Part shown: one piece after another, positions 1-64,000 of the stretch
Position numbering within the stretch: position 1 is the first letter of the stretch
Layout of the letters: each line of letters begins with the position of its first letter
From: Limosilactobacillus reuteri
GTDB taxonomy: Bacteria > Bacillota > Bacilli > Lactobacillales > Lactobacillaceae
Length of the DNA stretch: 64,000 nt
Direction of reading: 5' to 3'
Assembly (NCBI RefSeq): GCF_013694365.1
Contig: NZ_CP059275.1
Coordinates: 1,178,001 to 1,242,000 of the forward strand
Program-made: the position numbers and the translations under genes
Notes under the pieces: generated by a model
Databases searched by the model: none
Seen by the model: the letters and a program-made list of their open reading frames with translations, nothing else
Told to the model about the DNA's origin: nothing

Positions 1-1
1 T

Positions 2-550
2 ACAGATGCAAAGTTACTTCGCGAAATTCAAAAAGACGTTAAACAAGAAATTTTTGATTTTACAGGCACTGGAACTACTAAAACTTCTGGTGAAACCTTC
101 CAAAAAGCTTTATCAAAGGGTTTAGGTCAACTGGCAGTAAAATGGGAAGATGATGATATCCAATCTGTTGCTTTCGTTAACCCAATCGACCTCTATGATT
201 ATTTAGCAGAATCACCAATTACTTTGCAAAGTACGTTTGGATTACAATATATTCAAAATTTCATGGGTGTTAATACAATTATTGCATCTAATGCTGTAAA
301 GCAAGGGACGATTAATTTAACCGCTAGTCAAAATATTAATTATGCTTATGCGAATATTAGTGGTGCTTTAAGTCAGGCTTTTAATTTGGTTCCAGATGAG
401 ACAGGATTGATTGGGGTTACTCACGAACCTGTTAACAATAGTCTTTCTTATGAAACAGTAATTCTTTTAGCTGGAAAGCTTTACGCTGAACGTTTAGATG
501 GAATCATTACTTCAAAAATTGGTACTACTACCACTGCTGACAATAAGTAG
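2..550 (+). CDS. Phage major capsid protein (3' part)
   Basis: The reading frame is already open at the left edge, so only the C-terminal 182 residues are visible and the true start lies outside. The protein would form the icosahedral head shell. The text has capsid-like features: a stretch ending FVNPIDLYDYLAES followed by a region on recognition of the head surface rather than any enzymatic motif, and a Thr-rich tail. I call it mainly from its place next to a DUF4355 scaffold, MuF protein and portal, which is the standard head module of lactobacillus siphoviruses. An internal TTG at 224 is in frame but is not a credible start, because the frame continues upstream without a stop. Confidence 0.75.
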   Translation, partial: TDAKLLREIQKDVKQEIFDFTGTGTTKTSGETFQKALSKGLGQLAVKWEDDDIQSVAFVNPIDLYDYLAESPITLQSTFGLQYIQNFMGVNTIIASNAVKQGTINLTASQNINYAYANISGALSQAFNLVPDETGLIGVTHEPVNNSLSYETVILLAGKLYAERLDGIITSKIGTTTTADNK

Positions 551-628
551 TTGGACTTTTTACTTGTTGCAGTCATTAAAGAACAACCCGGATATTACAG
601 TCCACCGGACTATAAACGAGGTGTATTT

Positions 629-1243
629 ATGTTTGAAAAATTACCAATGCGTTTACAATTTTTTGCTGAAGATCCAACGCCAGCTCCAGATAATGATGGT
701 GCACCTGAAGGAACTGATGGGGATAATAACGGCAAAAGTGAAAAGACATTTACTCAAGCTGAATTAAACGACATTGTAAAAGCCCGAGTCAATCGAGCCT
801 TGAAAAATAAGCAAGAGGAAATTGACCAGGCAAAGAGTGAAGCTACTAAGCTTGCCAAGATGAATAAGGGTCAAAAGCAAGAATACAAGCTTCAACAAAC
901 TGAAAAGCGTGCCCAAGATGCTGAAGCGGAATTGGCTCGTTATAAAATGCGTGATACAGCTAAGCAACAATTAATTGACGGCGGGTATGATAACCCAACC
1001 GATGAAGATATCGATTTAATTGTTACTGATAAAGCAGAAACAACCAAAGAACGTGGTGAAGCATTTCTTAATGCTTATAACCGGATTAAAGAAAATGTTC
1101 GTCAAGAACTATTGAAGGGAAAGTCACCACGAATTAATGGTGCTCCTGCTACTACAATGACTAAGGAACAAATTGCAAAGATCAAGGATCCAATTAAACG
1201 GCAAAAAGCCATCAAAAATAATATGGATCTTTATAAATTTTAA
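629..1243 (+). CDS. Phage scaffolding protein, DUF4355 family
   Basis: Assists capsid assembly and is lost from mature heads (family knowledge). The start at ATG 629 gives an N-terminus MFEKLPMRLQFFAEDP, typical of these proteins, and has a Shine-Dalgarno-like AACGAGG just upstream. The frame stays open upstream to a TTG at 551, but those 26 residues look like leader sequence rather than protein. The product is about 204 residues: an acidic Pro-rich start, then a long Lys/Glu/Gln-rich helical section (roughly residues 40-150) suited to coiled-coil, and a basic C-terminus ending KNNMDLYKF. It sits beside the capsid gene as expected. Confidence 0.8.
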   Translation: MFEKLPMRLQFFAEDPTPAPDNDGAPEGTDGDNNGKSEKTFTQAELNDIVKARVNRALKNKQEEIDQAKSEATKLAKMNKGQKQEYKLQQTEKRAQDAEAELARYKMRDTAKQQLIDGGYDNPTDEDIDLIVTDKAETTKERGEAFLNAYNRIKENVRQELLKGKSPRINGAPATTMTKEQIAKIKDPIKRQKAIKNNMDLYKF

Positions 1244-1474
1244 ATGGCTAAAGCAACAAATAATTTGATTGGATTTGAAGAAGAACTAAATAAGGCAATT
1301 GATAATTATAATGCCAAATTTGGTGATGGTGCTTATTTTAAAATTGAGCCATTAGTTGACCCTTTACGACCTGATGGGCCAACTTCTTTACAAGCTATTA
1401 AAACGTTAAATAATGCGGTTATGAGTGGTAAGCCACTTCCTAATTCTAAGGCACCAAAAGATATCTTTTATTAA
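1244..1474 (+). CDS. Small phage head-region protein, function unknown
   Basis: A 76-residue protein without a recognised domain, no membrane segment and no cysteines. It lies between the MuF minor head gene and the scaffold gene, so a structural or assembly role is likely by position only. It begins MAKATNNLIGFEEELNKAI, which suggests a short amphipathic helix. Confidence 0.6.
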   Translation: MAKATNNLIGFEEELNKAIDNYNAKFGDGAYFKIEPLVDPLRPDGPTSLQAIKTLNNAVMSGKPLPNSKAPKDIFY

Positions 1475-3328
1475 GTGAATCCGATGACGAAGAAGAATGA
1501 TTATTGGGCTGATCGTATTGCTCGGGAACGTAAATGGCAAGAAGAGCAATTAAGTAAAGATGCTCAATTTAATCAGCGCCTTCAACAGTATTATGATCAA
1601 GCAATTGTCCAGATTAATAAAGACATTGAAGATCAGATAAATTCTTTAGCTGTCCGGAATAAAGTTTCTTATGCTGAAGCTCAAAAAGAAGTGTCCACTA
1701 CCGATATTGCTGATTATGAAACAGAAGCTAAGAAGGTAGTTCAGGAAGCTAATCTTTTAAGAGCACAAGGGAAGCATGTTACTTACAACGATTTCTCTGA
1801 TGAAGTTAATGAACGATTGAGGAATTATAATACGGCAATGCGATATAACCGATTAAATTTATTGAAATCTAAAATTGGTTTATCGATGGTTGAAGCCGGA
1901 ATGAATATTGACGCTGATATGCAAGCTAAAATTGGTAAAGATTATACTGATGAGCTAAAACGTCAGTCTGGTATTCTAGATCATTCTACCGAAAATGCTT
2001 CGTTTTGGACTTCTAAAGATGTTGCAAAACAAGTAATGAAACAAATTAATGGAGCAACTTTTAGTCAACGAATTTGGGCTAATCAAGATGCTTTGAAAGC
2101 TCAACTTGATACGGTTATCACCAACGGGATTTTAACTGGTAAGAATCCGCGAGTTGTAGCAAGACAATTAAGAGATAAAGTAAAAACCACTGTTAAGAAT
2201 CACAGTTATGTTACTGAACGTATTGCCAGGACAGAATCAGCACGGGTTCAATATTCTGCTCAAATTGAATCAATCAAAAAGAATGGTTATCAATTTGTCC
2301 AATGGATTGCGGAGCCAAGAGCCTGTGATGAGTGTCGAAAGATTGCGACGCAAGATAATGGCTTTGGTGATGGTATTTATCGAATTAATAAAGTTCCTAA
2401 AATACCAGACGATACTCATCCTAATTGTCGTTGTTCAATTAGTGAGACGTGGGTTGACGATAAGGATGATAATTTAATTTCTGCTAACAAAACAAAAAGT
2501 TTTGACGAATTAATGAAAGCTAATCTGAAATCACTTCACGAGCAAGAAATTATTCAATTAGGTTCAAAAATTTATGAAACACTAGCTAAAAGTGGTAAGG
2601 AGTTATCTTCACAAATAAATGTATTGCAAAAGAATTTTCAAAGCATTAACAAATCATATGATGCTGGGAAATTTAAGTCATACGATGATTATTTAGAAAA
2701 CTGGCAGCTAAATGCTGATGCTATTAAACTACTTAGTAATCAATATGCGGATAACGTCACTCAAGAAATACAAAAATATCGTAAAGTTGGTGGAACTAAA
2801 ATTAAGTTCCAGTCACGTTCGTCTGTACCGCTTAAAAAAATGATTCAAACGGCGTATGACCACTATCCAACGGATTGGGCCAGAAATGCTGAAAGCCGTA
2901 ATACATTAAAAGTATTAAACGTAAAACGTGGATATTACTCAGACTCTCAAGCAATTATTGCAGCTAATAAAGATGACTATAATGCTCAAAGCACCATGTA
3001 CCATGAGCTAGGACATCGTGCTGAACATTCCAATCCAGAAATTATGCGATTAGAGCAAGAGTTTTATGAGCGTAGAACAAAAGACGAGAAGCTTCAACCA
3101 TTGAGTAAGTTAACCGGAAATAAAGCTTATGATAAATCAATGGAAAAAGCTCGACCTGATGATTTTAATAATCCTTACATGGGGAAAGAATATGTTGATT
3201 CCTATGGAAAACATTATGGTTATGAATTGTTAAGTATGGGCGTTGAAGGAATTTATCAAGGCCGTTATAATTTATATGAAGACGAAGATATGGCTAAGTT
3301 TATTTTGGGGCTTTTGTTAAAGGGGTGA
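1475..3328 (+). CDS. Minor head protein, phage Mu gpF (MuF) domain with C-terminal zincin motif
   Basis: A 617-residue protein. Residues about 200-330 hold the MuF/SPP1 gp7-like domain, which associates with the portal: a T-E-R-I-A-R-T-E-S segment, a CDECRKIA cysteine pair and the diagnostic HPNCRC. The remaining ~285 residues are longer than a plain minor head protein needs. They contain HELGHRAEH at residues 510-518, an HExxH zinc-metallopeptidase signature, followed about 70 residues later by YELLSMGVE, a possible third-ligand glutamate. The C-terminal part may be an effector delivered with the virion, as known for MuF-linked toxins (inference). The GTG start is supported because the first 26 bases recur exactly at the end of the portal gene, meaning portal natively precedes and overlaps it. 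Confidence 0.85.
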   Translation: MNPMTKKNDYWADRIARERKWQEEQLSKDAQFNQRLQQYYDQAIVQINKDIEDQINSLAVRNKVSYAEAQKEVSTTDIADYETEAKKVVQEANLLRAQGKHVTYNDFSDEVNERLRNYNTAMRYNRLNLLKSKIGLSMVEAGMNIDADMQAKIGKDYTDELKRQSGILDHSTENASFWTSKDVAKQVMKQINGATFSQRIWANQDALKAQLDTVITNGILTGKNPRVVARQLRDKVKTTVKNHSYVTERIARTESARVQYSAQIESIKKNGYQFVQWIAEPRACDECRKIATQDNGFGDGIYRINKVPKIPDDTHPNCRCSISETWVDDKDDNLISANKTKSFDELMKANLKSLHEQEIIQLGSKIYETLAKSGKELSSQINVLQKNFQSINKSYDAGKFKSYDDYLENWQLNADAIKLLSNQYADNVTQEIQKYRKVGGTKIKFQSRSSVPLKKMIQTAYDHYPTDWARNAESRNTLKVLNVKRGYYSDSQAIIAANKDDYNAQSTMYHELGHRAEHSNPEIMRLEQEFYERRTKDEKLQPLSKLTGNKAYDKSMEKARPDDFNNPYMGKEYVDSYGKHYGYELLSMGVEGIYQGRYNLYEDEDMAKFILGLLLKG

Positions 3329-4765
3329 ATGGAAACAGTAAACGGTAAAGGACAAATTTTAGATGGCCATATTTTTATCTATCCAGCTGATGAAAAAGAA
3401 CTTGATCCGCATGATTTACTGTCGTTCATGAGAAGGAATATTCAGTATGCTAAGGATTACAAGCATAATATGCAAATGTATCTAGGTAATCACGATATCT
3501 TGGATCAACAGCGGCGGATGTATGGACCAGATAATCGGCTAGTAGCAAATTTACCGCATTATATTGTTGATACTTATAATGGATTCTTTACTGGAATCCC
3601 ACCTAAGATTACTTTAGATGATAAGAATGAGAACGAAGCATTACAGCAATGGAATGACACTAATTCGTTCCAGGACAAATTGAGTGAAATTAGTAAGCAA
3701 ACGGATATCTACGGACGTTCGTTTGCTTTTATTTATCAAGATGAGAACGCAGACACTTGTATTGCTTATGCTTCTCCTACAGATGCCTTCATGGTTTACG
3801 ATGATACGGTTGCTAGAAAACCTTTTGCTTTTGTTCGTTACTGGAAAGATACTGAAAGCGGCTTATGGACCGGAATGGTTTATTACGCTAATAAAATTAA
3901 AACCTTCAAAGGTAGTGTTGTTGAAGATTCAGATCAAAACAATATGTATAATTTAGTGCCAGCAGTTGAATTTTATGGAAATGAGGAGCGGCAAGGTGTT
4001 TTTGATAATGTTAAAACATTAATCGATGAATTAGACCGAGTATTATCACAGAAAGCTAACCAAGTGGAATATTTTGATAATGCTTACCTTAAAATTCTTG
4101 GTCTTGATTTAGATGAGGATAGTGATGGTAGACCGGATGCTAATTTAATTGGTAATCAAATGATTTATTCGCCTAATGCTGATGCTGCTAATGCCGATGT
4201 CGAATTCATTTCAAAACCAGATGGTGATAATATGCAAGAACATATTATTGACCGGCTTATTTCAATGATTTACCAGGTAAGTATGGTTGCTAACCTTAAT
4301 GATGAAGCGTTTGCTGGTAATAGTTCTGGGGTGGCTTTGCAATATAAGTTACTTCCAATGCGAAATATGGCAGCTAATAAAGAGCGTAAATTTACTCAGG
4401 CACTCCGGAAGTTATATCGAATAGTGTTTAGTGCTGATCAAGTAGTCAAAGATAAGGATGCCTGGCAAGACTTGCTCTTTGATTTCAAACAAAACTTACC
4501 GATTGATGTTTCTGAAGAAGCTGATACTTTACAAAAACTATCAGGGGTTGTGTCAAAAGAAACTGCATTCCGAAATAGCCGTTTAATTGATGATCCTAAA
4601 AAGGAAGTTGAGCGTATGCAAAAAGAGAAGCAGGAAGAAATGAATCAAGCACTTCAACATTCTGCTTCTGCTACAGATCAAATGCTAATGGATGATCAAA
4701 AAGAAAACGATAAAGAAGTAGTTGGTTTCCGGAAGAACGGTGAATCCGATGACGAAGAAGAATGA
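3329..4765 (+). CDS. Phage portal protein, SPP1 gp6-like
   Basis: A 478-residue portal subunit. Portals form the dodecameric ring through which DNA enters the head and bind the terminase. Recognisable are the N-terminal segment with YLGNHDI and NRLVANLPHYIVDTYNGFF, typical of Gram-positive siphovirus portals, and an acidic C-terminus. It is flanked by terminase and MuF genes. Its last 26 bases (4740-4765) are identical to the first 26 of the MuF gene at 1475, so the native order is portal then MuF with an out-of-frame overlap. Confidence 0.9.
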   Translation: METVNGKGQILDGHIFIYPADEKELDPHDLLSFMRRNIQYAKDYKHNMQMYLGNHDILDQQRRMYGPDNRLVANLPHYIVDTYNGFFTGIPPKITLDDKNENEALQQWNDTNSFQDKLSEISKQTDIYGRSFAFIYQDENADTCIAYASPTDAFMVYDDTVARKPFAFVRYWKDTESGLWTGMVYYANKIKTFKGSVVEDSDQNNMYNLVPAVEFYGNEERQGVFDNVKTLIDELDRVLSQKANQVEYFDNAYLKILGLDLDEDSDGRPDANLIGNQMIYSPNADAANADVEFISKPDGDNMQEHIIDRLISMIYQVSMVANLNDEAFAGNSSGVALQYKLLPMRNMAANKERKFTQALRKLYRIVFSADQVVKDKDAWQDLLFDFKQNLPIDVSEEADTLQKLSGVVSKETAFRNSRLIDDPKKEVERMQKEKQEEMNQALQHSASATDQMLMDDQKENDKEVVGFRKNGESDDEEE

Positions 4766-5950
4766 TTGGTACTGACTTATGGCGGTGCATCTTCTGGTAA
4801 ATCTCATGGTGTGGTACAGAAAGTTGTACTTAAATCACTCCAACACTGGAAACATCCACGTAAAGTGCTATGGCTTCGGAAAGTTGATCGAACAATTCAA
4901 GAATCAATCTTTGCAGATGTAATTGATTGTCTATCTAATTGGCAACTTCTACCTCTGTGTAGAGTAAATAAATCAAACCGTACTATTCATTTACCGAATG
5001 GTGCGGTTTTCTTGTTTAAAGGGATGGATGATCCAGAAAAAATTAAGTCGATTAAAGGATTGTCTGATGTGGTGATGGAAGAAGCATCTGAGTTTAATCA
5101 AGATGATTTTACGCAGCTTACTCTTCGTCTACGTGAACCTAAACATAAGAAACGACAATTGTTCTGTATGTTTAATCCAGTTAGCAAGTTGAACTGGACA
5201 TATAAGCAATGGTTTGATCCGAAAGCAAGGGTTGATTCGGAACGAGTATCAATTCACCAATCAACTTACAAGGATAATCACTTTTTGGACGCTGATAACA
5301 TTGCAACGATTGAGAACTTAAAACAAACCAACCCGGCCTATTATAAAATCTATACGCTAGGTGAATTTGCCACATTGGATAAGTTGGTCTTTCCTACCTT
5401 TACTAAACGTCGATTATACCCAGAAGAACCACAGTTGCGTGACTTGCCTGATTTGTTTGGCTTGGACTTTGGGTACAGCAACGATCCTTCTGCTTTTACT
5501 CATTCCAAGATTGATATGAAAAATAAACGTTTCTATGTTCTTGAAGAATACGTCAAAAAGGGAATGCTCAATAACGAAATAGCCAATGTAATTAAACAAA
5601 TGGGTTATACCAAAGAAGTTATCACGGCCGATGCTGCAGAACCAAAGTCAATTGCTGAATTAAAGCGTGATGGGATATATCGTATTCGACCCGCAAAGAA
5701 AGGGCCGGACTCAATTATTCAGGGTATTCAGTTCTTACAGCAGTTTGAATGGATTGTTGATGATCGTTGTGTCAAAACAATTGAAGAATTGGAAAACTAT
5801 ACATACAAGAAAGACCGAAAGACTGGTGAATATATCAATGAACCTGTTGATGCTTACAACCACTGCATCGATAGTTTGAGATATGGAAGTTCTGAATATA
5901 ACGGAATGGCTAGTCCAAAGGCAACTGTAATGAAAAATATTTATATTTAG
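4766..5950 (+). CDS. terL: Phage terminase large subunit, main fragment (5' end lost by frameshift)
   Basis: ATPase and nuclease motor that packages DNA into the prohead. The TTG-started product of 394 residues has a Walker A motif right at its N-terminus (GGASSGKSHGV), a Walker B DVVMEEASEF near residue 105, and nuclease residues in LFGLDFGYSNDPSAF and TADAAEP. Terminases carry about 30 residues before Walker A, and these are found in the separate piece at 5951-6055. The last 10 bases of that piece equal the first 10 here, so the native gene is one reading frame broken by an indel just before Walker A. Either the prophage packaging motor is dead or this is a sequencing error. Confidence 0.9.
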   Translation: MVLTYGGASSGKSHGVVQKVVLKSLQHWKHPRKVLWLRKVDRTIQESIFADVIDCLSNWQLLPLCRVNKSNRTIHLPNGAVFLFKGMDDPEKIKSIKGLSDVVMEEASEFNQDDFTQLTLRLREPKHKKRQLFCMFNPVSKLNWTYKQWFDPKARVDSERVSIHQSTYKDNHFLDADNIATIENLKQTNPAYYKIYTLGEFATLDKLVFPTFTKRRLYPEEPQLRDLPDLFGLDFGYSNDPSAFTHSKIDMKNKRFYVLEEYVKKGMLNNEIANVIKQMGYTKEVITADAAEPKSIAELKRDGIYRIRPAKKGPDSIIQGIQFLQQFEWIVDDRCVKTIEELENYTYKKDRKTGEYINEPVDAYNHCIDSLRYGSSEYNGMASPKATVMKNIYI

Positions 5951-6055
5951 ATGCCAAACATCAAACTAAATTTTCCTAAACCATACAACGTTTTCAATAA
6001 ACAAATTTTTGATAACTTGTTTGATTACAGTCATTTCGTTGAGATTTGGTACTGA
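5951..6055 (+). pseudogene. terL: Terminase large subunit, N-terminal fragment
   Basis: A 34-residue piece, beginning MPNIKLNFPKPYN and containing NKQIFDNLFDY, that matches the usual start of Gram-positive phage large terminases, then stops at TAC TGA. Its final bases 6046-6055 (ttggtactga) are repeated as the first bases of the fragment at 4766. Joining the two with one base shift restores a continuous terminase. It is too short to act alone. Confidence 0.75.
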
Positions 6056-6481
6056 TTGAGTGAAAAACTATCTAAGAAACAACAAGCGTGGTTAGATTTT
6101 TATTGTAGTGTTAGTAAAATGAACGCCACTGATGCTGCACGAAGAGCTGGTTATAAAGATCCGTATAAAAGCGGATTTGAAAACTCTAAAAAACTCCAAC
6201 AACAGATATCTCAGCGAATGAAAGAACTTCAAGAAAAATCAGGTGCTTCAATTATGAGCCAACAGGAGCTTGCAGAGTTCTTTTCTAATGTGACGATGGG
6301 GAAAGAAACTGAAAAGGTTGTTACAAATACTGGTAAGGTCGTTGAGGTTCCTGTATCGATGAAAGATCGCATCAAAACGGCAGAGTTGCTAGGCAAATCC
6401 TATGGTATGTTCGTTGATAAGAAAGAGGTCAGTGGTAACTTAGATATCGAAATTGGAATGGGCGAGTATGATGATGAATAG
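6056..6481 (+). CDS. terS: Phage terminase small subunit
   Basis: A 141-residue protein that recognises the packaging site and stimulates the large subunit. The N-terminal helix-turn-helix has the family pattern LSKKQQAWLDFY ... NATDAARRAGYKDP; the middle has MSQQELAEFFSNV, the oligomerisation region, and the C-terminus is acidic. TTG start: its first eight bases (ttgagtga) are identical to the last eight of the HNH gene at 7065-7072, so natively the HNH gene precedes it with a short overlap, which supports this start. Confidence 0.85.
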   Translation: MSEKLSKKQQAWLDFYCSVSKMNATDAARRAGYKDPYKSGFENSKKLQQQISQRMKELQEKSGASIMSQQELAEFFSNVTMGKETEKVVTNTGKVVEVPVSMKDRIKTAELLGKSYGMFVDKKEVSGNLDIEIGMGEYDDE

Positions 6482-7072
6482 GTGAGTAGTATTACTAAAA
6501 AATTAACACAGAAGCAACAACGATTTGTTGATGAGTACATTATTTCGGGTAATGCTACTCAGGCGGCAATCAAGGCGATTGGTAAATCGATTGTTGATCC
6601 GAACATGAGACGATTGTGGGCTTTGAAGGAATTGGCAAAAAGATATACGATGAATTATTCTTCACGGGTTAGACCGATAAACTGGAACCGATGTGTAGAT
6701 GCATTGGCTGTTATAATTTCAAAAGGTGCTAATAAATACCAAAAGATAGCTGCACGCGAGATTTTGTTTATCTATTTAGGCAAGAAGGCCACATATGATT
6801 TGATTGAAAACGATGCTGTAGTAACTAGTCGTAATGACGAATTAGTAACCCGTTGGAAAAATAAATGTTTGAAGCGTGATTCATACACTTGTCAAGTTTG
6901 CGGCAGTAAAAGACATCTATGTGTACATCACGTCTCATACTGGTCTGTTGACCCAATTAATCGGATAAATACGGATAACGGAATTACGTTATGTAATGAA
7001 TGTCATGCTAAGCAACACGCTGGTGAACCTGTTTATAAACTCATTATGTCAGGCGGTGATAGTTTTGAGTGA
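6482..7072 (+). CDS. TerS-like N-terminus joined to HNH endonuclease
   Basis: A 196-residue, GTG-started protein with two parts. Residues 1-100 read like a second small terminase: LTQKQQRFVDEYIISGNATQAAIKA, the usual TerS DNA-binding start, then a KYQKIAAREIL helix. Residues 110-190 form an HNH nuclease: CQVCG, HVHH-type centre (LCVHHVSYW), LCNECHAKQH with paired zinc cysteines. HNH proteins next to terminases are needed for cos cutting in several phages (known). The fusion to a TerS-like domain, beside a separate terS, is unusual. Alternatively it is a homing-type HNH that captured a terS 5' end. Confidence 0.75.
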   Translation: MSSITKKLTQKQQRFVDEYIISGNATQAAIKAIGKSIVDPNMRRLWALKELAKRYTMNYSSRVRPINWNRCVDALAVIISKGANKYQKIAAREILFIYLGKKATYDLIENDAVVTSRNDELVTRWKNKCLKRDSYTCQVCGSKRHLCVHHVSYWSVDPINRINTDNGITLCNECHAKQHAGEPVYKLIMSGGDSFE

Positions 7073-7621
7073 ATGATTGTTTTAGAAACTATACATCATA
7101 TAAACGTTACTTATAATTTAGGAAACTTAGCTGATTGGTTGAGTGCCATTGCAACTCTTGCGGCTGTATTTGTCTCACTCTACCTTGCCAATAGGAAACC
7201 AAAACCTTTTTTAGTAATAAAATCAGCTTATTTTCCAGAAGAGAAAGATAAAAAAATGCCAGACGGGGTTGTTTTTAAAGGAGTAAAAGAGCACATTGTC
7301 GTTTTGATAGAAAATGATAATGACTATCCTGTAGCAATGGTCCCTCAAAATCATCACAAGATACTTAAACCGGTTTTTGGCATTAATGAAAATACATTAT
7401 ACATAGCAGGTGGAAATGCAAAAAGAAAAACTAGATCTATGGAAATTGAAGCTTTAGACAATTTGATTTGGAAACAATTCAAGATTCGTGATATTTACTC
7501 TAATGCTGTGTACAGATTTAGATTTATAAAAAAAGACGATGAATGGATAATACTATATCCATTAAGATTGAAAAACTATATAGAAGTGATTCGGTGTATA
7601 GTAAGTAAAATTAAAAACTAA
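7073..7621 (+). CDS. Membrane-anchored phage protein, function unknown
   Basis: A 182-residue protein with one clear N-terminal membrane segment (around residues 22-42, WLSAIATLAAVFVSLYLAN) and a soluble domain rich in beta-prone and charged residues. No catalytic motif is recognised. It lies between the ArpU regulator and the HNH/terminase genes and has lower GC than the structural genes, a position where phages often carry accessory cargo. Possible roles in superinfection exclusion or host interaction are speculation. Confidence 0.55.
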   Translation: MIVLETIHHINVTYNLGNLADWLSAIATLAAVFVSLYLANRKPKPFLVIKSAYFPEEKDKKMPDGVVFKGVKEHIVVLIENDNDYPVAMVPQNHHKILKPVFGINENTLYIAGGNAKRKTRSMEIEALDNLIWKQFKIRDIYSNAVYRFRFIKKDDEWIILYPLRLKNYIEVIRCIVSKIKN

Positions 7622-8080
7622 ATGCAAACAGATTTGAACTTAGATATAGATTGTTTGAAAACTGCACGGAAGGTTACTGAGTTTCTTGAAAAGAAGCTGG
7701 ATCGCTATCTAGCTTTATCCGGGAAACAACGATTTGATTTGAAGTCACCAGGAATGGACGGAATGCCTAAAGCGCCTAGTCATGGCAATGGAAGTGAAAG
7801 TCGAATGCTAAATATTTGGTTGGCAGAAGAAGTAGTCGATTGTGTGGGTTGTTCAATGCGAAACATGACAAAGGAATCGCAACGGATATTGTTAAGTCGT
7901 TATTCAGACCAAATGTTGACGTACAACATTGCCAGGGAATTAAGTATTAGTTCATCAACATATAGTCGAAAACAAGAGAAAGCATTGTGTGAATTTGCTG
8001 ATCGATTTGAATTTCAATTAGTTAAGCATGGTATTCACACTGAAATAGAGGACTTACATGTTTATCCAGATGAGGAATGA
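7622..8080 (+). CDS. ArpU-family phage late transcription regulator
   Basis: A 152-residue protein resembling the ArpU/RinA type regulators that switch on late structural genes. The C-terminal half has the sigma-like helix-turn-helix pattern: SQRILLSRYSD then YNIARELSISSSTYSRKQEKAL. It occupies the standard position between the early small genes and the terminase module. The N-terminal half (residues 1-60) is charged and helical. Confidence 0.8.
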   Translation: MQTDLNLDIDCLKTARKVTEFLEKKLDRYLALSGKQRFDLKSPGMDGMPKAPSHGNGSESRMLNIWLAEEVVDCVGCSMRNMTKESQRILLSRYSDQMLTYNIARELSISSSTYSRKQEKALCEFADRFEFQLVKHGIHTEIEDLHVYPDEE

Positions 8081-20657: not shown

Positions 20658-20728
<71 letters not shown>

Positions 20729-20803: not shown

Positions 20804-20874
20804 AGGGATATAGTTAAACGGTATAACTACGGTCTCCAAAACCGTCATTGTGGGTTCGATTCCTACTATCCCTG
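20804..20874 (+). tRNA. tRNA-Trp (CCA)
   Basis: Acceptor AGGGATA/TATCCCT with discriminator G, anticodon loop CTCCAAA (CCA). 71 bases. Confidence 0.93.
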
Positions 20875-55445: not shown

Positions 55446-56606
55446 ATGAAAAAATTAGAAAAGTTGACTGGTGTCTGTAGTTTATTATTAAATTTAATGC
55501 CTTTTTTGCTGTATATTTCCCTTACTAAAGAACAGTCTGATATCTTTGTTGGTGCCTTGCCCTTCGCTATTTTCTATGCTTTCCGGCATACAATTTTATT
55601 ATTTTGCCGTGATTTAGAATACGATTATCAACGGCTGGCCTGGATTGGTCTTTATAGCGGAATTATTGGTTACTTTTTAGGGATGTTTGGTGGATTTCAA
55701 CCAATCTTCTGGGATTTGTCAGGTGCAGGGGCAGGGATTGCCTCTCGACTATTTCCAACCGCAATAAGTCAGCGGCGGCGATTAATAAAACGAGGACTCT
55801 TACCCCAGCAGGATCATCTTAAGCCGCTTTTTCAAGTTATTATAGTTTTGATTGTGTTTGGGATAATTGTGTGGATAAAGAAGCCAGTAATTAGTTTTGT
55901 TTTAATGTTAATCATTACTTTTGGTGCAATGGGATCAATTTGGAAAACACCCCATGCAATTCGTCCGCTGCCAGTTCGTCTACATTGGGCTAATTACTTA
56001 CTAGCATTAATTTTGCTTGGCGCAATGTTACTGTTGCGATTAGGGAGAAGTTTAGGCTTTGGGAAACCACTTGAATGGGGAACCGCTCTTTTATTAATCT
56101 TCCTCATCACGATGATCCTTACCTTGCTTGTAAACCATCGGCGATTACTTCACTATCCCAATCATTTACGGCAACGAATAATGCTTTATGGTGCTTGTGG
56201 TCAGTATTGGACCTTGTATAGTACCGTTTTTATTGGCATTTTGTATGGCACAAAAATGTATTCTTGGACAATTGTTGCTTACTTATTTGCTTTCGTCTTT
56301 GGAGGATTATTGGTAAAACAAACCCACCATTTATTCCATTTTAAGGATTGTCAAATTAATTTAGTGATGCTAACAATTGGAATTCTCTTAACATTTTGGT
56401 TGCCAACATATTTTATTGGCGTATTTATCATCCGTAGCTTTGCCGGTGCAGAACGTAAAACAGCAATTGATGACTACGAGAAAGCAACCCATAATTATAG
56501 TATTTCTTCGATCGTCAATTATTACTATGCATCAATTGCGGGGATAATTTCCCAATTAGTAATGTGGGGAAGTTTATTTATTTCCCGAAATGTCAATTTA
56601 AGTTAG
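55446..56606 (+). CDS. Multi-pass membrane protein, 3' end altered by IS30
   Basis: A 386-residue membrane protein with about ten hydrophobic helices, not recognised. Its final 11 residues (LFISRNVNLS) are encoded by sequence identical to the start of the IS30 remnant that follows (33-bp repeat 56574-56606 and 56607-56639), so the real C-terminus was probably replaced by insertion-element sequence. Length of the native protein unknown. Confidence 0.65.
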   Translation: MKKLEKLTGVCSLLLNLMPFLLYISLTKEQSDIFVGALPFAIFYAFRHTILLFCRDLEYDYQRLAWIGLYSGIIGYFLGMFGGFQPIFWDLSGAGAGIASRLFPTAISQRRRLIKRGLLPQQDHLKPLFQVIIVLIVFGIIVWIKKPVISFVLMLIITFGAMGSIWKTPHAIRPLPVRLHWANYLLALILLGAMLLLRLGRSLGFGKPLEWGTALLLIFLITMILTLLVNHRRLLHYPNHLRQRIMLYGACGQYWTLYSTVFIGILYGTKMYSWTIVAYLFAFVFGGLLVKQTHHLFHFKDCQINLVMLTIGILLTFWLPTYFIGVFIIRSFAGAERKTAIDDYEKATHNYSISSIVNYYYASIAGIISQLVMWGSLFISRNVNLS

Positions 56607-56639
56607 TTATTTATTTCCCGAAATGTCAATTTAAGTTAG
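56574..56639. repeat. 33-bp tandem direct repeat (IS end)
   Basis: Bases 56574-56606 and 56607-56639 are identical and adjacent. The unit corresponds to the end of an IS30-type element, including the stop region of its transposase on the minus strand. Adjacent copying fits a gene overlap written twice. Confidence 0.8.
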
Positions 56640-56750
56640 AAAAAAAGTAGTTGCTCATCAGTGACATACTTCATGAATACCTCGTAAGGTGTTTGATAGC
56701 CCAATGATTTGCGAGGAATGTTGTTCCGGTAACTCATTATTAAGTGCGTC
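56607..56750 (-). pseudogene. IS30-family transposase, C-terminal remnant
   Basis: Minus-strand frame reads MTHLIMSYRNNIPRKSLGY, then QTPYEVFMKYVTDEQLLF, the C-terminus of IS30-type transposases. A run of T bases has one extra base, turning the expected LLFSNLN end into LLFF and an early stop. Only about 40 residues remain; the DDE catalytic domain is absent. It is a dead IS end next to the membrane protein gene. Confidence 0.75.
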
Positions 56751-56873
56751 ATTTGACGGACATCCTTTCATATAGGTTTGGTTCACTTAATATGATACCT
56801 GATGTCACGCCGAATGGCGTTTTTTATTTACCACCAACTGGGTGGCTAACTTCATTCTATAATCCACCTTTTT
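56751..56873 (+). other. Non-coding stretch with hairpins
   Basis: The only clear non-coding DNA between chromosomal genes. It holds a likely terminator (56807-56825) and then CCACC-AACTG-GGTGG at 56831-56845. I do not recognise a riboswitch; the second hairpin could be part of the 5' leader of the downstream small gene and aminotransferase. Confidence 0.5.
56807..56825 (+). terminator. Intrinsic terminator
   Basis: ACGCC-GAAT-GGCGT stem followed by TTTTT and more T-rich DNA on the + strand. Short stem but a clean U-tract. Confidence 0.65.
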
Positions 56874-57008
56874 ATGATAGATTTCACTAATACAGAAATG
56901 GCAGTAGCCGTTATCTTTACTTTAATAATAATGTTTGTAATATCCTTTGCAGTTAGTTTTTTATTTTGGTTGATTTACCACCAAAATATGAAAAAAGGTG
57001 GATTATAG
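56874..57008 (+). CDS. Small single-pass membrane protein
   Basis: A 44-residue protein, MIDFTNTEMAVAVIFTLII, with a strong membrane helix (residues 9-36) and tail HQNMKKGGL. An alternative start is Met9. It ends AAAAAAGGTGGATTATAG, which doubles as the Shine-Dalgarno for the aminotransferase starting one base later, so the pair is likely co-translated. Unlike other boundaries in the window this one looks native. Confidence 0.6.
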   Translation: MIDFTNTEMAVAVIFTLIIMFVISFAVSFLFWLIYHQNMKKGGL

Positions 57009-58202
57009 ATGACACAATTTAAATATTCAAAGCGTGTTCCAGCAGATGGTACGGATGCGGTTGGTGCAATTTTACAAGCAGCGGCGGATCCTAAGATTAT
57101 TTCATTTGCTGGGGGATTGCCGGCACCCGAATTGTTTCCTGTTAAAGAAATGAAAGCAACTGTTGATAAAGTTTTTGAAGAACACGGTCAAGAAGCCATG
57201 CAGTATGGGGCAGCGAAGGGAGTCACAGCTTTACGTGAGGTTATCCAACAACATGTGAAGGAAAAAGAAAATGTGGATTCCGAATTAGACAATGTTTTAG
57301 TAACAACGGGATCAGAACAAGCCTTAGATTTAGTGGGCAAGGCTTTTGTTGATCCGGGTGATACTGTATTAGTTGAACAGCCAACGTACCTCTGTGCTTT
57401 AGATGTTTTTCGTTCTTACGGTGCTAATTTTGCTAGTGTTGAGATGGACGAAGATGGGATGAAGATGGATGCTTTAGAAGAAGCACTAAAGGCTAATCCA
57501 AATACCAAACTCATCTATACTGTGCCAAATTTCCAAAATCCAACTGGACGGACAATGACTGAAGAACGACGAAAGCAGTTAGCTGAATTAGCAGAAAAAT
57601 ATGATGTATATGTACTAGAAGATAATCCATATGGTGAAATTCGTTTTGCTGGCCAACATGTACCAGCAGTTAAGTCATTTGATAAATCGGGTCATGTCCT
57701 TTACATGAGTACATTTTCAAAGACATTAGCACCAGGATTTCGTTTAGGATGGTTGGTTGCTGATGAAGATGTGGTTAATAAATTAACGGTCCTTAAGCAA
57801 TCAGCTGACCTCCATACAGATAATTTAGCTCAATTCGCGGTTGCCCAATTCTTTGCTGACAACGATGTGGATGCCCACGTTAAAGAAATTAGTGATTTAT
57901 ATGGCAAACGTAAAGATTTAATGCTTGAGGGAATTAAAAAGTACTTCCCAGAAGGAGTTAAATATACGAATCCTGAAGGCGGTATGTTCTTATGGGTAGA
58001 AGTTCCTGGCGTTGACGATACAGTAGAGTTATTTAAGGAATGCCTTGAACATGATGTAGCCTTTGTTCCAGGCGATCCGTTCTTTGCTGGTGAAGCTCAA
58101 CCTGGTGCTTTCCGCTTGAACTATTCAAATATGAAAGAAGACCAGATTGAAGTTGGTTTAAAACGTTTAGGAGCGGCCTTAACAGCTGCAGTTAATAAGT
58201 AA
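57009..58202 (+). CDS. PLP-dependent aminotransferase, paralog 2
   Basis: A 397-residue enzyme nearly the same as the one at 35304: same length, same motif set (FAGGLPAPELFP, NFQNPTGRTM, LEDNPYGEIRF, PLP lysine in TFSKTLAPGFRLGW). Differences are scattered, and codon choice differs, with fewer G/C third bases here, so this is an older duplication or a transfer rather than a recent copy. Likely acts on aromatic or branched-chain amino acids or 2-aminoadipate. Preceded by a good Shine-Dalgarno. Confidence 0.92.
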   Translation: MTQFKYSKRVPADGTDAVGAILQAAADPKIISFAGGLPAPELFPVKEMKATVDKVFEEHGQEAMQYGAAKGVTALREVIQQHVKEKENVDSELDNVLVTTGSEQALDLVGKAFVDPGDTVLVEQPTYLCALDVFRSYGANFASVEMDEDGMKMDALEEALKANPNTKLIYTVPNFQNPTGRTMTEERRKQLAELAEKYDVYVLEDNPYGEIRFAGQHVPAVKSFDKSGHVLYMSTFSKTLAPGFRLGWLVADEDVVNKLTVLKQSADLHTDNLAQFAVAQFFADNDVDAHVKEISDLYGKRKDLMLEGIKKYFPEGVKYTNPEGGMFLWVEVPGVDDTVELFKECLEHDVAFVPGDPFFAGEAQPGAFRLNYSNMKEDQIEVGLKRLGAALTAAVNK

Positions 58203-58895
58203 ATGGCTAAAAAACGTGGTAAGAAGTACCAAGACGCGCTCAAGAAAGTTGACAGCAAGAAAGAATACGCTGTTAAAGACGCTGTCCAATTAGTAAAAGA
58301 TATTGCCTACGCTAACTTCGACTCTACTATCGAAGTAGCATTTAACTTAAACGTTGACACAAAGCAAGCTGACCAACAATTACGTGGTGCCGTTGTTTTA
58401 CCAAATGGTACTGGTAAGGATCAAACAGTTATTGTTTTCGCTAATGGTGAAAATGCTAAGGCTGCTCAAGAAGCTGGTGCTGACTTTGTTGGCGACGATG
58501 ATTTAGTAGAAAAGATTCAAGACGGTTGGCTTGACTTTGATGTTGCAATTGCAACACCAGACATGATGCCTAAAGTAGGTCGTTTAGGACGTGTCCTCGG
58601 ACCTAAGGGCTTAATGCCAAACCCTAAGACTGGTACTGTTACGATGGACGTAGCCAAGGCTGTTTCTGATGCCAAGGCTGGTCAAGTAACTTACCGGACT
58701 GACCGTGATGGTAACGTTGCTGTACCATTCGGTAAGGTTTCATTTGATACTGACAAGTTAGTTGAAAACTTGGCTACTTTAGAAGATATTGTGGCTAAGG
58801 CTCGTCCAGCTTCAGTACGTGGAACATACATCAAGCACGCTTCCATTTCTTCAACATTTGGACCAAGTGTTACGCTTGATTTAACCACATTTTAA
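58203..58895 (+). CDS. rplA: 50S ribosomal protein L1
   Basis: A 230-residue ribosomal protein of the L1 stalk. [17 protein letters not shown] start, [21 protein letters not shown] signature. Normally follows rplK in one operon; here it precedes it. Confidence 0.97.
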
Positions 58896-59321
58896 GTGGC
58901 AAAGAAAGTAGCTAACATTGTCAAGTTGCAAATTCCTGCCGGTGCCGCTACACCAGCTCCACCAGTAGGTCCTGCACTTGGACAAGCAGGTATTAACATT
59001 ATGGGCTTCACTAAGGAATTCAACGCACGGACTGCAGACCAAAAGGGTATGTTGATCCCAGTTGTAATTACTGTATATGAGGACCGTTCATTCGACTTCA
59101 TTACTAAGACGCCACCTGCTGCTGTCTTACTAAAGAAGGCCGCTGGTGTTGAACATGGTTCCGGTGAACCTAACACAAACAAGGTTGCTTCAGTAACGAA
59201 GGACCAAGTTAAGGAAATCGCTGAAACTAAGATGCAAGATCTAAACGCAGCTGACGTAGAAGCAGCTATGCGCATGATTGAAGGTACTGCTCGTAGCATG
59301 GGCTTCACTGTTGAAGACTAA
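58896..59321 (+). CDS. rplK: 50S ribosomal protein L11
   Basis: A 141-residue protein: [22 protein letters not shown] with the thiostrepton-region prolines and [25 protein letters not shown] start. Binds 23S rRNA at the GTPase centre and is needed for the stringent response. Confidence 0.97.
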
Positions 59322-59864
59322 GTGGAATCACATGAAAAACGTTGGTATGTGCTCCATACCTACTCTGGTTATGAAAACCGGGTTAAAAGTAACTTGGAAT
59401 CACGGGCTCAATCAATGGGAATGGAAGACTACATTTTTCGCGTAGTTGTTCCTGAAGAAGAAGTTCGCCAGGTTAAGGACGGTCAAGCAAAAGAAACAAT
59501 TGAAAAGACATTCCCAGGCTATGTTTTGGTTGAAATGGTAATGACTGACCAAGCTTGGTACATTGCTCGTAATACTCCCGGCGTAACTGGTTTCTTAGGA
59601 TCTCACGGTGGTGGTTCCAAACCAACCCCATTGCTTCCTGAAGAAGTTGATCGGATTATGAAACGGATGGGAACCGAAACAACTGTTAGTGACATTGATG
59701 TTAAGGAAGGCGATACTGTAAAAGTTATTGCGGGATCCTTTGCAAATATGACTGCCAAGGTTGTAGAAGTTGATCACGAAAAGCAAAAGATTAAGGCGAC
59801 TGTTGAAATGTTCGGTCGTGAAACGGCTGCTGAATTAGGCTTTGATCAGATTGATACATTTTAG
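59322..59864 (+). CDS. nusG: Transcription termination/antitermination protein NusG
   Basis: A 180-residue elongation factor: NGN domain (RWYVLHTYSGYENRVKSNLE), linker and C-terminal KOW domain (KEGDTVKVIAGSFANMTAKV). GTG start. Binds RNA polymerase and ribosome. Confidence 0.97.
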   Translation: MESHEKRWYVLHTYSGYENRVKSNLESRAQSMGMEDYIFRVVVPEEEVRQVKDGQAKETIEKTFPGYVLVEMVMTDQAWYIARNTPGVTGFLGSHGGGSKPTPLLPEEVDRIMKRMGTETTVSDIDVKEGDTVKVIAGSFANMTAKVVEVDHEKQKIKATVEMFGRETAAELGFDQIDTF

Positions 59865-60041
59865 ATGCACTTAATTCGATTTATTAAGAGTGTTAACCAC
59901 GAAATGAAGCTAGTTGTATGGCCAACAGCTAAAGAGAATCGTCGTGATACGACTATTGTTGTTTCATTGACTCTGTTCTTCGTACTATTCTTTGCTCTGT
60001 TTGATTGGTTAATTCAATTAATGATGAAACTCTTTGTTTAA
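59865..60041 (+). CDS. secE: Preprotein translocase subunit SecE
   Basis: A 58-residue single-helix protein: SVNHEMKLVVWPTAKENRRDTTIVV before the membrane segment is the SecE signature. Part of the SecYEG channel. Classic neighbour of nusG and rpmG. Confidence 0.95.
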   Translation: MHLIRFIKSVNHEMKLVVWPTAKENRRDTTIVVSLTLFFVLFFALFDWLIQLMMKLFV

Positions 60042-60191
60042 ATGTCCCAGAAAAAAGTAGCATTGGAATGTACAAAGTGCGGTGCGCGTAATTATACGAT
60101 TACCGCTAACCCTCAACGACAAGAACGATTAGAATTACGTAAGTTCTGTAAACATTGCGGTGAGTATACTATTCATCGTGAAAGCAGATAG
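60042..60191 (+). CDS. rpmG: 50S ribosomal protein L33
   Basis: A 49-residue L33 with two CxxC pairs ([11 protein letters not shown] and [12 protein letters not shown]), the zinc-binding form. Native partner of secE. Ends at the TAG just before rlmB. Confidence 0.95.
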
Positions 60192-60941
60192 ATGAAAAAT
60201 GAGAATACGGATTTTATTATTGGCCGACATCCAGCTGTGATGGCACTAAAATCTGACCAAGAGATCAATAAAGTTTTTATTCAGTCGGGGTTAAAGGCCG
60301 ATGCTATTTCCCAGATTGTTAAATTAGCGAAGGAACGCCACTTAGTAGTATCGAATGTTCCTAAGAATAAATTGGACTTGATGACTGACCGACAAAATCA
60401 CCAGGGGGTTGTGTTAGCTGTAGCAGCATACCAATATGCAACTATTGATGACCTCTTTGATAACGCGGCTAAGCATGACGAAGATCCATTTTTCCTTATT
60501 CTTGATGAACTAGAGGATCCGCATAATTTAGGTTCAATCATGCGAACTGCTGATGCCGCTGGTGTTCATGGTATTATTATTCCACGCCGGCGAGCAGTAG
60601 GATTAACTTCAGTGGTTGCAAAAACATCTACGGGAGCAATTGAACATGTACCAGTTGTCCGAGTAACAAACCTGGTTCAAACTGCTAAAGAATTGCAAGA
60701 ACGCGGTGTTTGGCTGTTTGGTACTGATATGAAAGGAAAAGATTACCGAACATGGGATGCGCATGGTGCCGTCGCTTTGGTTATCGGCAATGAAGGTAAA
60801 GGAATTTCATCCTTGCTAAAGAAAACTTGTGATGAAATGCTAACAATTCCAATGGTTGGGCATGTTCAAAGTTTAAATGCGAGTGTGGCGGCAAGTTTGT
60901 TGATCTACCAAGGCTTTAACTCTCGTCATCCTTTAAAATAA
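60192..60941 (+). CDS. rlmB: 23S rRNA (guanosine-2'-O-)-methyltransferase
   Basis: A 249-residue SPOUT-fold methylase: N-terminal substrate-binding domain IIGRHPAVMAL, then LDELEDPHNLGSIMRTADA, VIGNEGKGISSL and IPMVGHVQSLNASVAASLLIY (trefoil knot). Its first 11 bases atgaaaaatga also end the mrnC gene (61345-61355), so natively mrnC precedes it with an 11-base overlap. Confidence 0.94.
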   Translation: MKNENTDFIIGRHPAVMALKSDQEINKVFIQSGLKADAISQIVKLAKERHLVVSNVPKNKLDLMTDRQNHQGVVLAVAAYQYATIDDLFDNAAKHDEDPFFLILDELEDPHNLGSIMRTADAAGVHGIIIPRRRAVGLTSVVAKTSTGAIEHVPVVRVTNLVQTAKELQERGVWLFGTDMKGKDYRTWDAHGAVALVIGNEGKGISSLLKKTCDEMLTIPMVGHVQSLNASVAASLLIYQGFNSRHPLK

Positions 60942-61355
60942 ATGGTACAAGCAGACTATCGACAACTTAATGGAATTGCTTTGGCTTATTTAGGGGATGC
61001 AGCTTATGAGGTTTACATTCGTCAGCATCTTTTAAACAAGGGAATTAGTAAGCCAACGAAACTACAACATATTGCTACCCACTATGTTTCGGCAAAAGCA
61101 CAGGCGGCTCTTATTGACTTGATGAAAGAAGACGAGTTACTGTCTGATGAAGAATGGTCGTATTTTAAACGTGGGCGAAATGCTAACAGTCATACTCACG
61201 CTAAGAATACATCAGTTATGACTTATCGGATTTCTACCGGATTTGAAGCAGTAATGGGTTACCTCAAATTAGCTGGTAAAGAAGAGCGATTGGCTGAATT
61301 AGCGCAATGGTGTATCGAACAAGTAGAAGCGGGGCGAACAGCACATGAAAAATGA
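60942..61355 (+). CDS. mrnC: Mini-ribonuclease 3
   Basis: A 137-residue RNase III domain without ds[25 protein letters not shown] contains the catalytic signature (G-D-A-x-x-E). It matures 23S rRNA ends. Standard neighbour of cysS and rlmB. Confidence 0.94.
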
Positions 61356-62768
61356 ATGCTAACAATTTACAATACGTTAACAAGAAAAAAAGAAGAATTT
61401 AAGCCATTGCATCCAGGCGTTGTTAACATGTATGTCTGTGGTCCGACGGTTTATAATTACATTCATATTGGAAATGCGCGCAGTGCGATCGCCTTTGATA
61501 CAGTCCGACGTTACCTTGAATTCAAAGGGTATAAAGTAAATTATGTTTCTAACTTTACAGACGTTGACGATAAAATGATTAAGGCAGCTGCCGAGCAAGG
61601 GATTACCGTTCCACAATTAGCGGAGAAGTATATCAATGCTTTTATGGAAGATACCGCAGCAATTAATATTGAGCCAGCTACTCTTCATCCCCGGGCAACG
61701 GAAAACATTACCGAGATCATTAAGTTCGTGCAAGGATTAGTAGAAAAAGGATATGCCTACCCTAAAGATGGGGATGTTTATTATCGCGCACGAAAGTTTA
61801 ACCACTATGGACAGCTTTCTGGACAATCACTTGATGATCTTGAAGTTGGGGCAAGTGAACATGTTAGTGCAGATGAGGTTAATAAGAAGGAAGATCCACT
61901 TGATTTTGCTTTATGGAAAGCAGCTAAGCCCGGCGAAATTAGTTGGGATTCACCATGGGGAAAAGGTCGTCCAGGATGGCATATCGAATGTTCAGTGATG
62001 TCTACTAAGTACTTGGGCAAGACAATTGATATTCATGCAGGGGGACAAGACCTTGAATTCCCTCACCATGAAAATGAGATTGCTCAAAGTGAAGCAGAAA
62101 CAGGCCAAAAATTTGTTCGTTACTGGATGCATAATGGTTTCGTAACAATTGGAAAAGACAACGAGAAGATGAGTAAGTCTCTCCATAATTTCATTACTGT
62201 TCATGAAATTATCAAGGAAGTAGATCCTCAGGTTTTACGTTTCTTTATGGCGACTACGCAATACCGGCGTCCAATTCAATATAGCCAGGCAAACCTAACT
62301 GATGCGCAAAATAATCTTAATCACATTCAAATAGCCTTTGATAACTTGACTTATCGTGAACAAGATGCCGATGAGGGAGATGTTCAAGAAGTCACTGATC
62401 GGCTTGAGCAATTCCATCACCAATTTATTACAGCAATGGATGATGACATCAATGTTCAAAACGGGATTGCCACAGTCTACGAATTAGTTAAATATGCAAA
62501 TGTTTATGCTCAACAAGATAATGTTAGCTTAGGTGCCATTCAAGCAATCAAAAAAGAGCTTGTTGAATTGATGAGTATTTTTGGCGTTAAGCTTGAAGCA
62601 AGTGACAATCAAATCAATGATGAAAAGATTAAGCAATTGATTGAAGAACGAAATATAGCACGGAAGAATAAAGATTTTGCGCGAAGTGATGAAATTCGAG
62701 ACAATCTTAAAAAACAAGGGATTATTCTTGAAGATACTCCTCAAGGAACGCGTTACAAAAAGGAATAG
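61356..62768 (+). CDS. cysS: Cysteinyl-tRNA synthetase
   Basis: A 470-residue class I synthetase. HIGH-type motif IHIGNARS, zinc/cysteine site CGPTVYNY and [20 protein letters not shown] as [10 protein letters not shown], and the C-terminal helical anticodon part. Length standard. Confidence 0.96.
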
Positions 62769-63917
62769 ATGCGGCGTAGAATGATTACTCTCATTTATAT
62801 TCTAGTTGGCGCGGCAGTGGGATTTTACTATTTGCCATTATTATGGGGGATTTTGAACATCGCTCTTAATCCGGCATTATTAGTATTTATCGACATTATT
62901 ATTGGTGCACTTATTTTCTGGCTATTATCCCTCCCATTGGTTAGCGGCACTGAAAAGTTGATCCAGCGAATCGAAAAAGAACTAACAAAGCGTAGTCCTG
63001 TATACCTTTTCTTTGGGACTTTATTAACGATTATTGGCTTAGTTTTAGCAGTTCTTATTTCGATTCCATTGTGGAGAACGAGGATTCCGGTAATTAATAA
63101 TATTCTGCCGATCCTTCTAATGATTGTCTTTAGTTATTTTGGTTTTCGAATTGGTACGACGCGGTTAGATGATTGGCGTAAAGCATTTACCCATGCCAAA
63201 AGTAGTAAAACCGATGGTGGTAATGTGATTGAACGGCAAGATGATAATTATCACCATTATAAAATCCTAGATACAAATATTCTGATTGATGGACGCATTT
63301 ATGATTTAGTCAAAACGGGTTTTCTAGAGGGAACATTACTGGTTCCTAACTTTGTTTTATATGAATTGCAATATATCGCTGATTCTGGCGAAAGTATTAA
63401 GCGTGTTCGTGGGCGCCGTGGCCTTGATATTTTAAACAAGTTACGGAAAGAAAAAATTGTTCCAATCGAAATGTATGATGGAGACTTTGAAGATATTCCA
63501 GAGGTTGATAGTAAATTAATTGCCCTCGCTAAAGAAGTCAATGGGGTAATTGTGACAAATGATTATAACCTTAATAAAGTAATTCAATTCCAAAATGTTC
63601 AAGTATTGAATATTAATAACTTAGCAAAATCATTACGACCACGAGTTATTCCGGGCGAAACGATGACGGTTGTTGTTGTGAAAAAAGGAACTGAACGACA
63701 ACAGGGTGTTGCTTATCTTGACGATGGAACGATGGTGGTTGTTGAAGATGGTCGTTACTTTATGGATAAACAAATTGAAGTTGAAGTAACTAGTGCTCTT
63801 CAAACAGACGCTGGTCGAATGATCTTTGCTCGTCCGCTTCATTCACAACGAGGAATTGACGAGTATACGGATACGGAACATAAAGAAAACCGAAATAATA
63901 AAGATAAGAAAAAATAA
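62769..63917 (+). CDS. PIN/TRAM-domain membrane protein (YacL type)
   Basis: A 382-residue protein: four membrane helices in residues 1-135, then a PIN nuclease domain (YKILDTNILIDGRIYDLV, later ALAKEVNGVIVTNDYNL) and a C-terminal TRAM domain (VIPGETMTVVVVKKGTE). Typical YacL protein, lying between radA and cysS. It is thought to act on RNA at the membrane. Confidence 0.9.
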   Translation: MRRRMITLIYILVGAAVGFYYLPLLWGILNIALNPALLVFIDIIIGALIFWLLSLPLVSGTEKLIQRIEKELTKRSPVYLFFGTLLTIIGLVLAVLISIPLWRTRIPVINNILPILLMIVFSYFGFRIGTTRLDDWRKAFTHAKSSKTDGGNVIERQDDNYHHYKILDTNILIDGRIYDLVKTGFLEGTLLVPNFVLYELQYIADSGESIKRVRGRRGLDILNKLRKEKIVPIEMYDGDFEDIPEVDSKLIALAKEVNGVIVTNDYNLNKVIQFQNVQVLNINNLAKSLRPRVIPGETMTVVVVKKGTERQQGVAYLDDGTMVVVEDGRYFMDKQIEVEVTSALQTDAGRMIFARPLHSQRGIDEYTDTEHKENRNNKDKKK

Positions 63918-64000
63918 ATGGCAAAAATTCGAACACAATATGTTTGCCAAAATTGTGGTTACAACTCACCACGCTACTTAGGCCGGTGTCCAAATTGTGG
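63918..64000 (+). CDS. radA: DNA repair protein RadA, 5' end
   Basis: The first 27 codons: MAKIRTQYVCQNCGYNSPRY, followed by LGRCPNCG, the C4 zinc finger that opens RadA/Sms. The rest (AAA domain and Lon-like domain) is cut by the window edge. RadA helps in recombination and branch migration. Confidence 0.9.
   Translation, partial: MAKIRTQYVCQNCGYNSPRYLGRCPNC

What the first reader, a model, noticed from the sequence alone, without database searches (positions are those of the whole stretch)
1..64000. The window is a strand-flattened, spacer-free compilation of genes, not native DNA
Nearly every gene begins on the base following the previous stop codon, and all protein genes outside the rRNA/IS segments read +. 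Real genomes have spacers, promoters and both strands. Gene-level biology can be read, but spacing, operons, promoters and strand cannot. Any claim about intergenic control or gene order must be made with this in mind.
Basis: seen in the sequence. Interest (0 to 1): 0.8.

Follow-up and report, generated by a model that had tools for sequence, protein, structure and literature searches.

The report
Genome record made of joined genes
This stretch, and the genome record it comes from, is not natural DNA but a list of annotated genes and repeats glued end to end, so anything seen between genes in it is an artefact.

Summary
53 of 57 large + strand ORFs in the window, and 263 of 282 in 20 stretches sampled along the 2,085,667-base single contig, are followed directly by a start codon; in a closed relative it is 6 of 328. 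The record reads as a feature list: each CDS, tRNA and rRNA written 5'->3' without spacers. The strongest proof is internal: where neighbours overlap natively, the shared bases are printed twice (38 matches of 7+ nt in 429 junctions; 38 in about 30,000 random pairs). Three of the ten such overlaps in the window can be compared with relatives and agree in size (14 and 14; 37 and about 36; 11 in 4 of 6 relatives). T-box leaders and RNase P RNA, which lie between genes, are missing although the record is rated 100% complete. The other pieces are mostly tRNAs and repeats; exact-repeat lengths peak at 125-128 nt, suggesting a k=127 draft assembly behind it. Artefact: low biological interest, some data-quality interest.

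The parts
1..550 (+). 3' part of a phage gene whose start lies before the window; perhaps the capsid gene
   Evidence: open frame to a stop at 550; name only by position beside MuF, portal and terminase genes, inferred
551..20572 (+). chain of 37 abutting ORFs; prophage head genes stand in reverse of the usual order (MuF-like head protein 1475-3328, portal 3329-4765, large terminase 4766-5950), all reading +
   Evidence: doubled overlaps of 26, 10 and 8 nt in the '--' sense; usual order recalled
20573..21030 (+). six tRNA genes head to tail without spacers: Leu, Cys, His, Trp, Tyr, Phe
21031..21189 (-). repeat piece holding tRNA-Val and tRNA-Glu on the - strand; the same two tRNAs are printed again in sense at 21190-21334
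   Evidence: whole 159 nt recurs at G000:C1:2023380-2023538, 99%; inverted repeats I2, I3
21190..21546 (+). tRNA-Val, tRNA-Glu, tRNA-Ser and 5S rRNA in sense, no spacers
21547..22475 (.). repeat pieces: 5S rRNA on the - strand (121-nt perfect inverted repeat with the 5S copy before it), then further pieces including group II intron reverse-transcriptase sequence
   Evidence: I1; pieces recur at many places of the record
22476..22703 (+). truncated group II intron reverse-transcriptase piece, a second exact copy of 21797-22026
   Evidence: (D1); label from the YADD motif, recalled
22704..56606 (+). chain of 44 abutting ORFs; those that map in relative G012 lie there on both strands, mostly with spacers
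56607..56873 (.). repeat pieces (about 56607-56741 and 56742-56873), IS-like; the first opens with a second copy of the last 33 nt of the gene before it
   Evidence: read by eye; each recurs at many places
56874..63917 (+). a 44-aa ORF and then 10 abutting ORFs; from 58203, rplA, rplK, nusG, secE, rpmG, rlmB, mrnC, cysS, yacL stand in exact reverse of native order, all reading +
   Evidence: cysS from Pfam, the other gene names recalled from length and order

Best explanation
The sequence is a record artefact. A short-read draft assembly was annotated; the nucleotide sequences of its annotated features (CDS, tRNA, rRNA and repeat regions), in contig and position order, were joined head to tail, each gene in its own 5'->3' sense, and the string was deposited as a one-contig genome. 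Shown: no spacers, one strand, doubled overlaps, local order largely kept, intergenic RNAs missing, record-wide extent by sampling. Inferred: a k=127 de Bruijn assembly (from the 125-128 nt peak of exact repeats) and an annotation that lists repeat regions, as I recall classic RAST does.
For: Abutting ORFs in window and 20 stretches against two native relatives. Overlap bases printed twice: 38 matches of 7+ nt in 429 junctions (33 '--', 5 '++', 0 '+-', 0 '-+') against 38 in about 30,000 random pairs (27 of them '++' or '--'). Sizes where comparable (3 of the 10 in the window): 25745/25746 14 nt, G012 14; 28871/28872 37 nt, G012 about 36; 60941/60942 11 nt, 11 in 4 of 6 relatives; also a 4-nt one at 29852/29853, G012 4. 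In G012 31 of 91 window ORFs map, 18 + and 13 -, and 16 of 19 near pairs have gaps of 11 to 2645 nt. T-box: 1 weak match against 7-32 in each of 14 other genomes, and 1 against 4 or more in each of 120 others. RNase P RNA: 0. Rfam: 0 hits in 120 kb (6 of the 20 stretches) against 6 cis-regulatory hits in 120 kb of G012. GC skew positive in 20 of 20 stretches, 10 of 20 in closed G008. Of 18 true chain breaks in window and 19 stretches, 4 are tRNAs and 11 are other sequence with further copies in the held part of the record.
Against: Program and maker are not shown. 3 of 18 chain breaks are neither a tRNA by ARAGORN nor repeated in the part searched. RNase P RNA is also missed in 2 of 14 relatives and tmRNA over the cut-off in 2 of 14. 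The overlap at 60941/60942 is 8 nt in L. gastricus and about 5 in G008, not 11. Doubled overlaps are lopsided (33 to 5), and 4-6 nt ones are near chance level, which the model does not explain. All six G012 stretches also have positive skew, so skew alone is weak.
Confidence: 0.98

Rival explanations
1. A real, extremely compacted genome in which spacers were lost and genes turned to one strand.
For: One contig, rated 100% complete and 0.96% contaminated; long intact ORFs.
Against: Overlap bases printed twice; two tRNAs, 5S and two of three 16S genes carry inverted copies beside them; no RNase P RNA and almost no T-boxes; relatives are normal.
Confidence: 0.005
2. Same artefact, but made from the feature file of another pipeline, for example Prokka's transcript file, with repeats added otherwise.
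For: Such a file holds CDS, tRNA and rRNA in order (recalled).
Against: Repeat pieces are present; no tmRNA over the cut-off, whereas Prokka lists tmRNA (recalled); but tmRNA is also missed in 2 of 14 relatives.
Confidence: 0.4
3. A transcript (cDNA) assembly rather than annotation features.
For: One strand, gene-sized pieces.
Against: ORF pieces run from start to stop codon without untranslated ends, operons are cut into single genes, and the six tRNAs at 20573-21030 abut end to end.
Confidence: 0.01

Closest known systems
Native Limosilactobacillus chromosomes (G012 and G008, unnamed; L. kribbianus L036, L. avistercoris L037, Ca. L. merdigallinarum L038, L. alvi L039)
   Same: Many of the same genes in the same local order; CysS 76-87% identical in L036-L039
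   Different: Spacers, both strands, single copies of overlap bases; T-boxes present in the whole genomes tested
Multi-FASTA of annotated features joined into one record (recalled kind, no call)
   Same: Start-to-stop pieces, one direction, native order, no spacers, RNA genes included
   Different: Here held as a chromosome, and with repeat / contig-end pieces

Membership tests
Feature-concatenated sequence record (artefact) | a stop codon is followed directly by the next start codon | tested here: met
   53 of 57 and 263 of 282 against 6 of 328 and 0 of 90 in native controls
Feature-concatenated sequence record (artefact) | bases shared by overlapping neighbours are present twice | tested here: met
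   38 matches of 7+ nt in 429 junctions, 38 in about 30,000 random pairs; sizes compared with relatives for 3 of 10 in the window
Feature-concatenated sequence record (artefact) | native - strand genes are turned to +, order kept | tested here: met
   13 of 31 mapped ORFs are - in G012; 19 of 23 mapped neighbour pairs near and in order, 4 not; rplA to yacL in reverse of native order yet reading +
Feature-concatenated sequence record (artefact) | unannotated intergenic RNAs are absent | tested here: met
   T-box, RNase P RNA, Rfam
Feature-concatenated sequence record (artefact) | every piece that is not an ORF is an annotated RNA or repeat | tested here: inconclusive
   15 of 18 chain breaks are a tRNA or repeated sequence; 3 unclassified, with only part of the record searched
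Feature-concatenated sequence record (artefact) | annotation or submitter files show the joining | not testable with these tools
   the record is unnamed, and its own entry may be left out of the collections
Natural ultracompact genome | overlap bases present once; essential RNAs intact | tested here: not met

The most novel reading that the evidence does not exclude
Gene-only records like this pass completeness checks, which look at genes, and so a class of them may sit unnoticed among species-representative genomes and distort surveys of promoters, riboswitches, operons, strand bias and gene loss; the fraction of abutting ORFs plus doubled overlaps would flag them quickly.
Probability: 0.4. 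Interest if true: 0.35.

Novelty: not a real feature. Interest (0 to 1): 0.18.

Why it matters
Claims from this record about spacers, promoters, terminators, riboswitches, hairpins, strand bias, replication skew or missing small RNAs are void, and inverted repeats at its tRNA and rRNA genes are suspect. Protein-level findings stand, and local gene order mostly. It is rated 100% complete, so that check gives no warning. In a sample of 120 other genomes of the family, at least 90% complete, none was as poor in T-boxes (lowest 4), so I saw no second case there by that one sign.

Tried and rejected
Natural compaction was rejected because overlap bases are doubled. Promoter and terminator scans said little: promoter-like sites 42 (shuffles 51.2) in window 23022-43021 and 43 (shuffles 60.7) in native L034; terminator-like 9 (shuffles 16.2) and 18 (shuffles 14.9). 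Phage collection, window 1-20000 only: 3 records, two of them the same phage, at most 2% of the query. Literature: five keyword searches on this kind of artefact, on RAST repeat features and on a matching Limosilactobacillus record (90, 0, 1, 15 and 18 papers, of which 10, 0, 1, 10 and 8 were listed), and one on the record length (121 papers, 5 listed, all unrelated). I saw listings and starts of abstracts only and opened no paper; no listed title describes this artefact. sigH: a sigH-like gene lies between rlmB and rpmG in L036-L039 and in G008; the window has none there, and the record has a homologue elsewhere, 40% identical to that of L036 (G000:C1:88186-88719). Loss from the list, true move and paralogy are not separated.

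Corrections and limits. One search left out the second chain of the window by a wrong start point; one search replaces it. include two stretches (L013, L014) that each overlap the window by 2 kb; one search leaves these two out. The random control skipped pairs fewer than three genes apart, so its n is a little under 30,000. Inverted matches are counted from both sides, so about twice. One search dropped neighbour pairs 3 kb or more apart and left out L. gastricus (L042), run on re-checking, gives these. tblastn gaps are extrapolated to gene ends. Copies of chain-break pieces were sought only in the window and 20 stretches.

Full report
What was claimed. I checked this in the window, in samples of the rest of its record, and against native relatives.

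The observation. Three chains of directly abutting ORFs cover 95.1% of the window (91 ORFs; borders). Of 57 + strand ORFs of 150 aa or more, 53 are followed at once by a start codon; one ORF of that size is on the - strand, antisense over two + genes. The window is G000:C1:1178001-1242000 of a 2,085,667-base, one-contig genome rated 100% complete. In 20 stretches of 20 kb spread over that record, 263 of 282 + ORFs abut and 5 are -; 19 of the 20 have chains, the last (L021) has none. The same script gives 6 of 328 in 20 stretches of the closed relative G008 (173 +, 155 -) and 0 of 90 in six stretches of G012 (61 +, 29 -).

Doubled overlaps. If overlapping genes are cut out one by one and joined, their shared bases must appear twice. 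They do. In 429 junctions (window plus 20 stretches) there are 38 matches of 7 or more nt, 33 '--' and 5 '++'; about 30,000 random gene pairs give 38, of which 27 are of these two kinds. The direction of the match tells the native strand: the end of the portal gene (4765) and the start of the MuF-like gene (1475) share 26 nt, so natively portal precedes MuF, the reverse of the printed order. Of the 10 such overlaps in the window, 3 could be compared with relatives: 14 nt at 25745/25746 and 14 in G012; 37 nt at 28871/28872 and about 36 in G012; 11 nt at 60941/60942 and 11 in L036, L037, L038 and L039, but 8 in L. gastricus (L042) and about 5 in G008. A 4-nt one at 29852/29853 is 4 in G012 too.

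Native order and strand. In 120 kb of G012, 31 of the 91 window ORFs map (18 on +, 13 on -). Of 23 window-neighbour pairs that both map, 19 lie within 3 kb and in the same order, 16 with a gap of 11 to 2645 nt and 3 overlapping; 4 lie 17-31 kb apart. In L. kribbianus, L. avistercoris, Ca. L. merdigallinarum and L. alvi, rplA to yacL run in exact reverse of the window, all on one strand, with spacers in 6 or 7 of 8 pairs. So the window prints a native - strand block in rising coordinates with each gene turned over.

What is missing. T-box leaders: one weak match in the record against 7 to 32 in each of 14 other genomes, and 1 against at least 4 in each of 120 family members, with capped counting. 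RNase P RNA: none, found in 12 of 14 others. tmRNA over the cut-off: none (three weak matches), found in 12 of 14 others. Rfam at gathering score: 0 in 120 kb (6 of the 20 stretches) against 6 cis-regulatory elements in 120 kb of G012; the window has only tRNA and 5S, and four further stretches only tRNA, 5S and group II intron pieces. 16S is present in three full copies, all +, two of them with a partial inverted copy directly behind.

The other pieces. At 20573-22475 tRNA-Val, tRNA-Glu and 5S stand both in sense and inverted, as 73-, 72- and 121-nt perfect inverted repeats. The inverted copies lie in repeats: the 159-nt piece recurs in full at one other place, and other pieces recur many times. 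At 56607 a piece opens with a second copy of the last 33 nt of the gene before it and recurs widely. Of 18 true chain breaks in the window and 19 stretches, 4 are tRNAs, 11 are other sequence with further copies in the part of the record held here, and 3 are unclassified. Exact repeats in the window and 18 stretches peak at 125-128 nt (64 direct matches), the size of overlap that a de Bruijn assembly at k=127 leaves at contig ends. The record begins with a short open frame followed by its inverted copy, as if cut at a contig edge, and the 17.8 of the last 20 kb that I read are short repeat pieces, often in doubled or inverted copies. My reading is a draft assembly whose feature list, repeats included, was joined. 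The program is inferred from recall.

What stays usable. Proteins, and mostly local gene order. Strand can be recovered at overlaps or from relatives. Not usable: spacers, promoters, terminators, leaders, inverted repeats at RNA genes, skew, absence of small RNAs. Absence of a protein is doubtful too, since an uncalled gene leaves no trace; the sigH position is a possible case, not settled.

Left open. '--' overlaps (33) far outnumber '++' (5), and 4-6 nt overlaps ('--' 15, '++' 9) are near the chance level of about 10 each; I have no explanation beyond contig orientation and start calling.

Noticed in passing
window 60191/60192: No gene between rpmG and rlmB, where L036-L039 and G008 have a sigH-like gene; a homologue, 40% identical to that of L036, lies at G000:C1:88186-88719.
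   Followed up: partly
window 8482-8780: About 300 nt are 90% identical to Lactobacillus phage LfeInf (host L. fermentum), on the - strand of its record.
   Followed up: no
window 21797-22026 and 22476-22705: Group II intron reverse-transcriptase piece printed twice; by eye against L021:4680-5020 it lacks an internal stretch.
   Followed up: no
L021 (G000:C1:2065668-2085667): The end of the record is made of short repeat, group II intron, IS-like and 5S pieces, many in doubled or inverted copies.
   Followed up: partly
junctions sampled: Doubled overlaps are lopsided: 33 '--' against 5 '++'; 4-6 nt overlaps are near chance level.
   Followed up: partly
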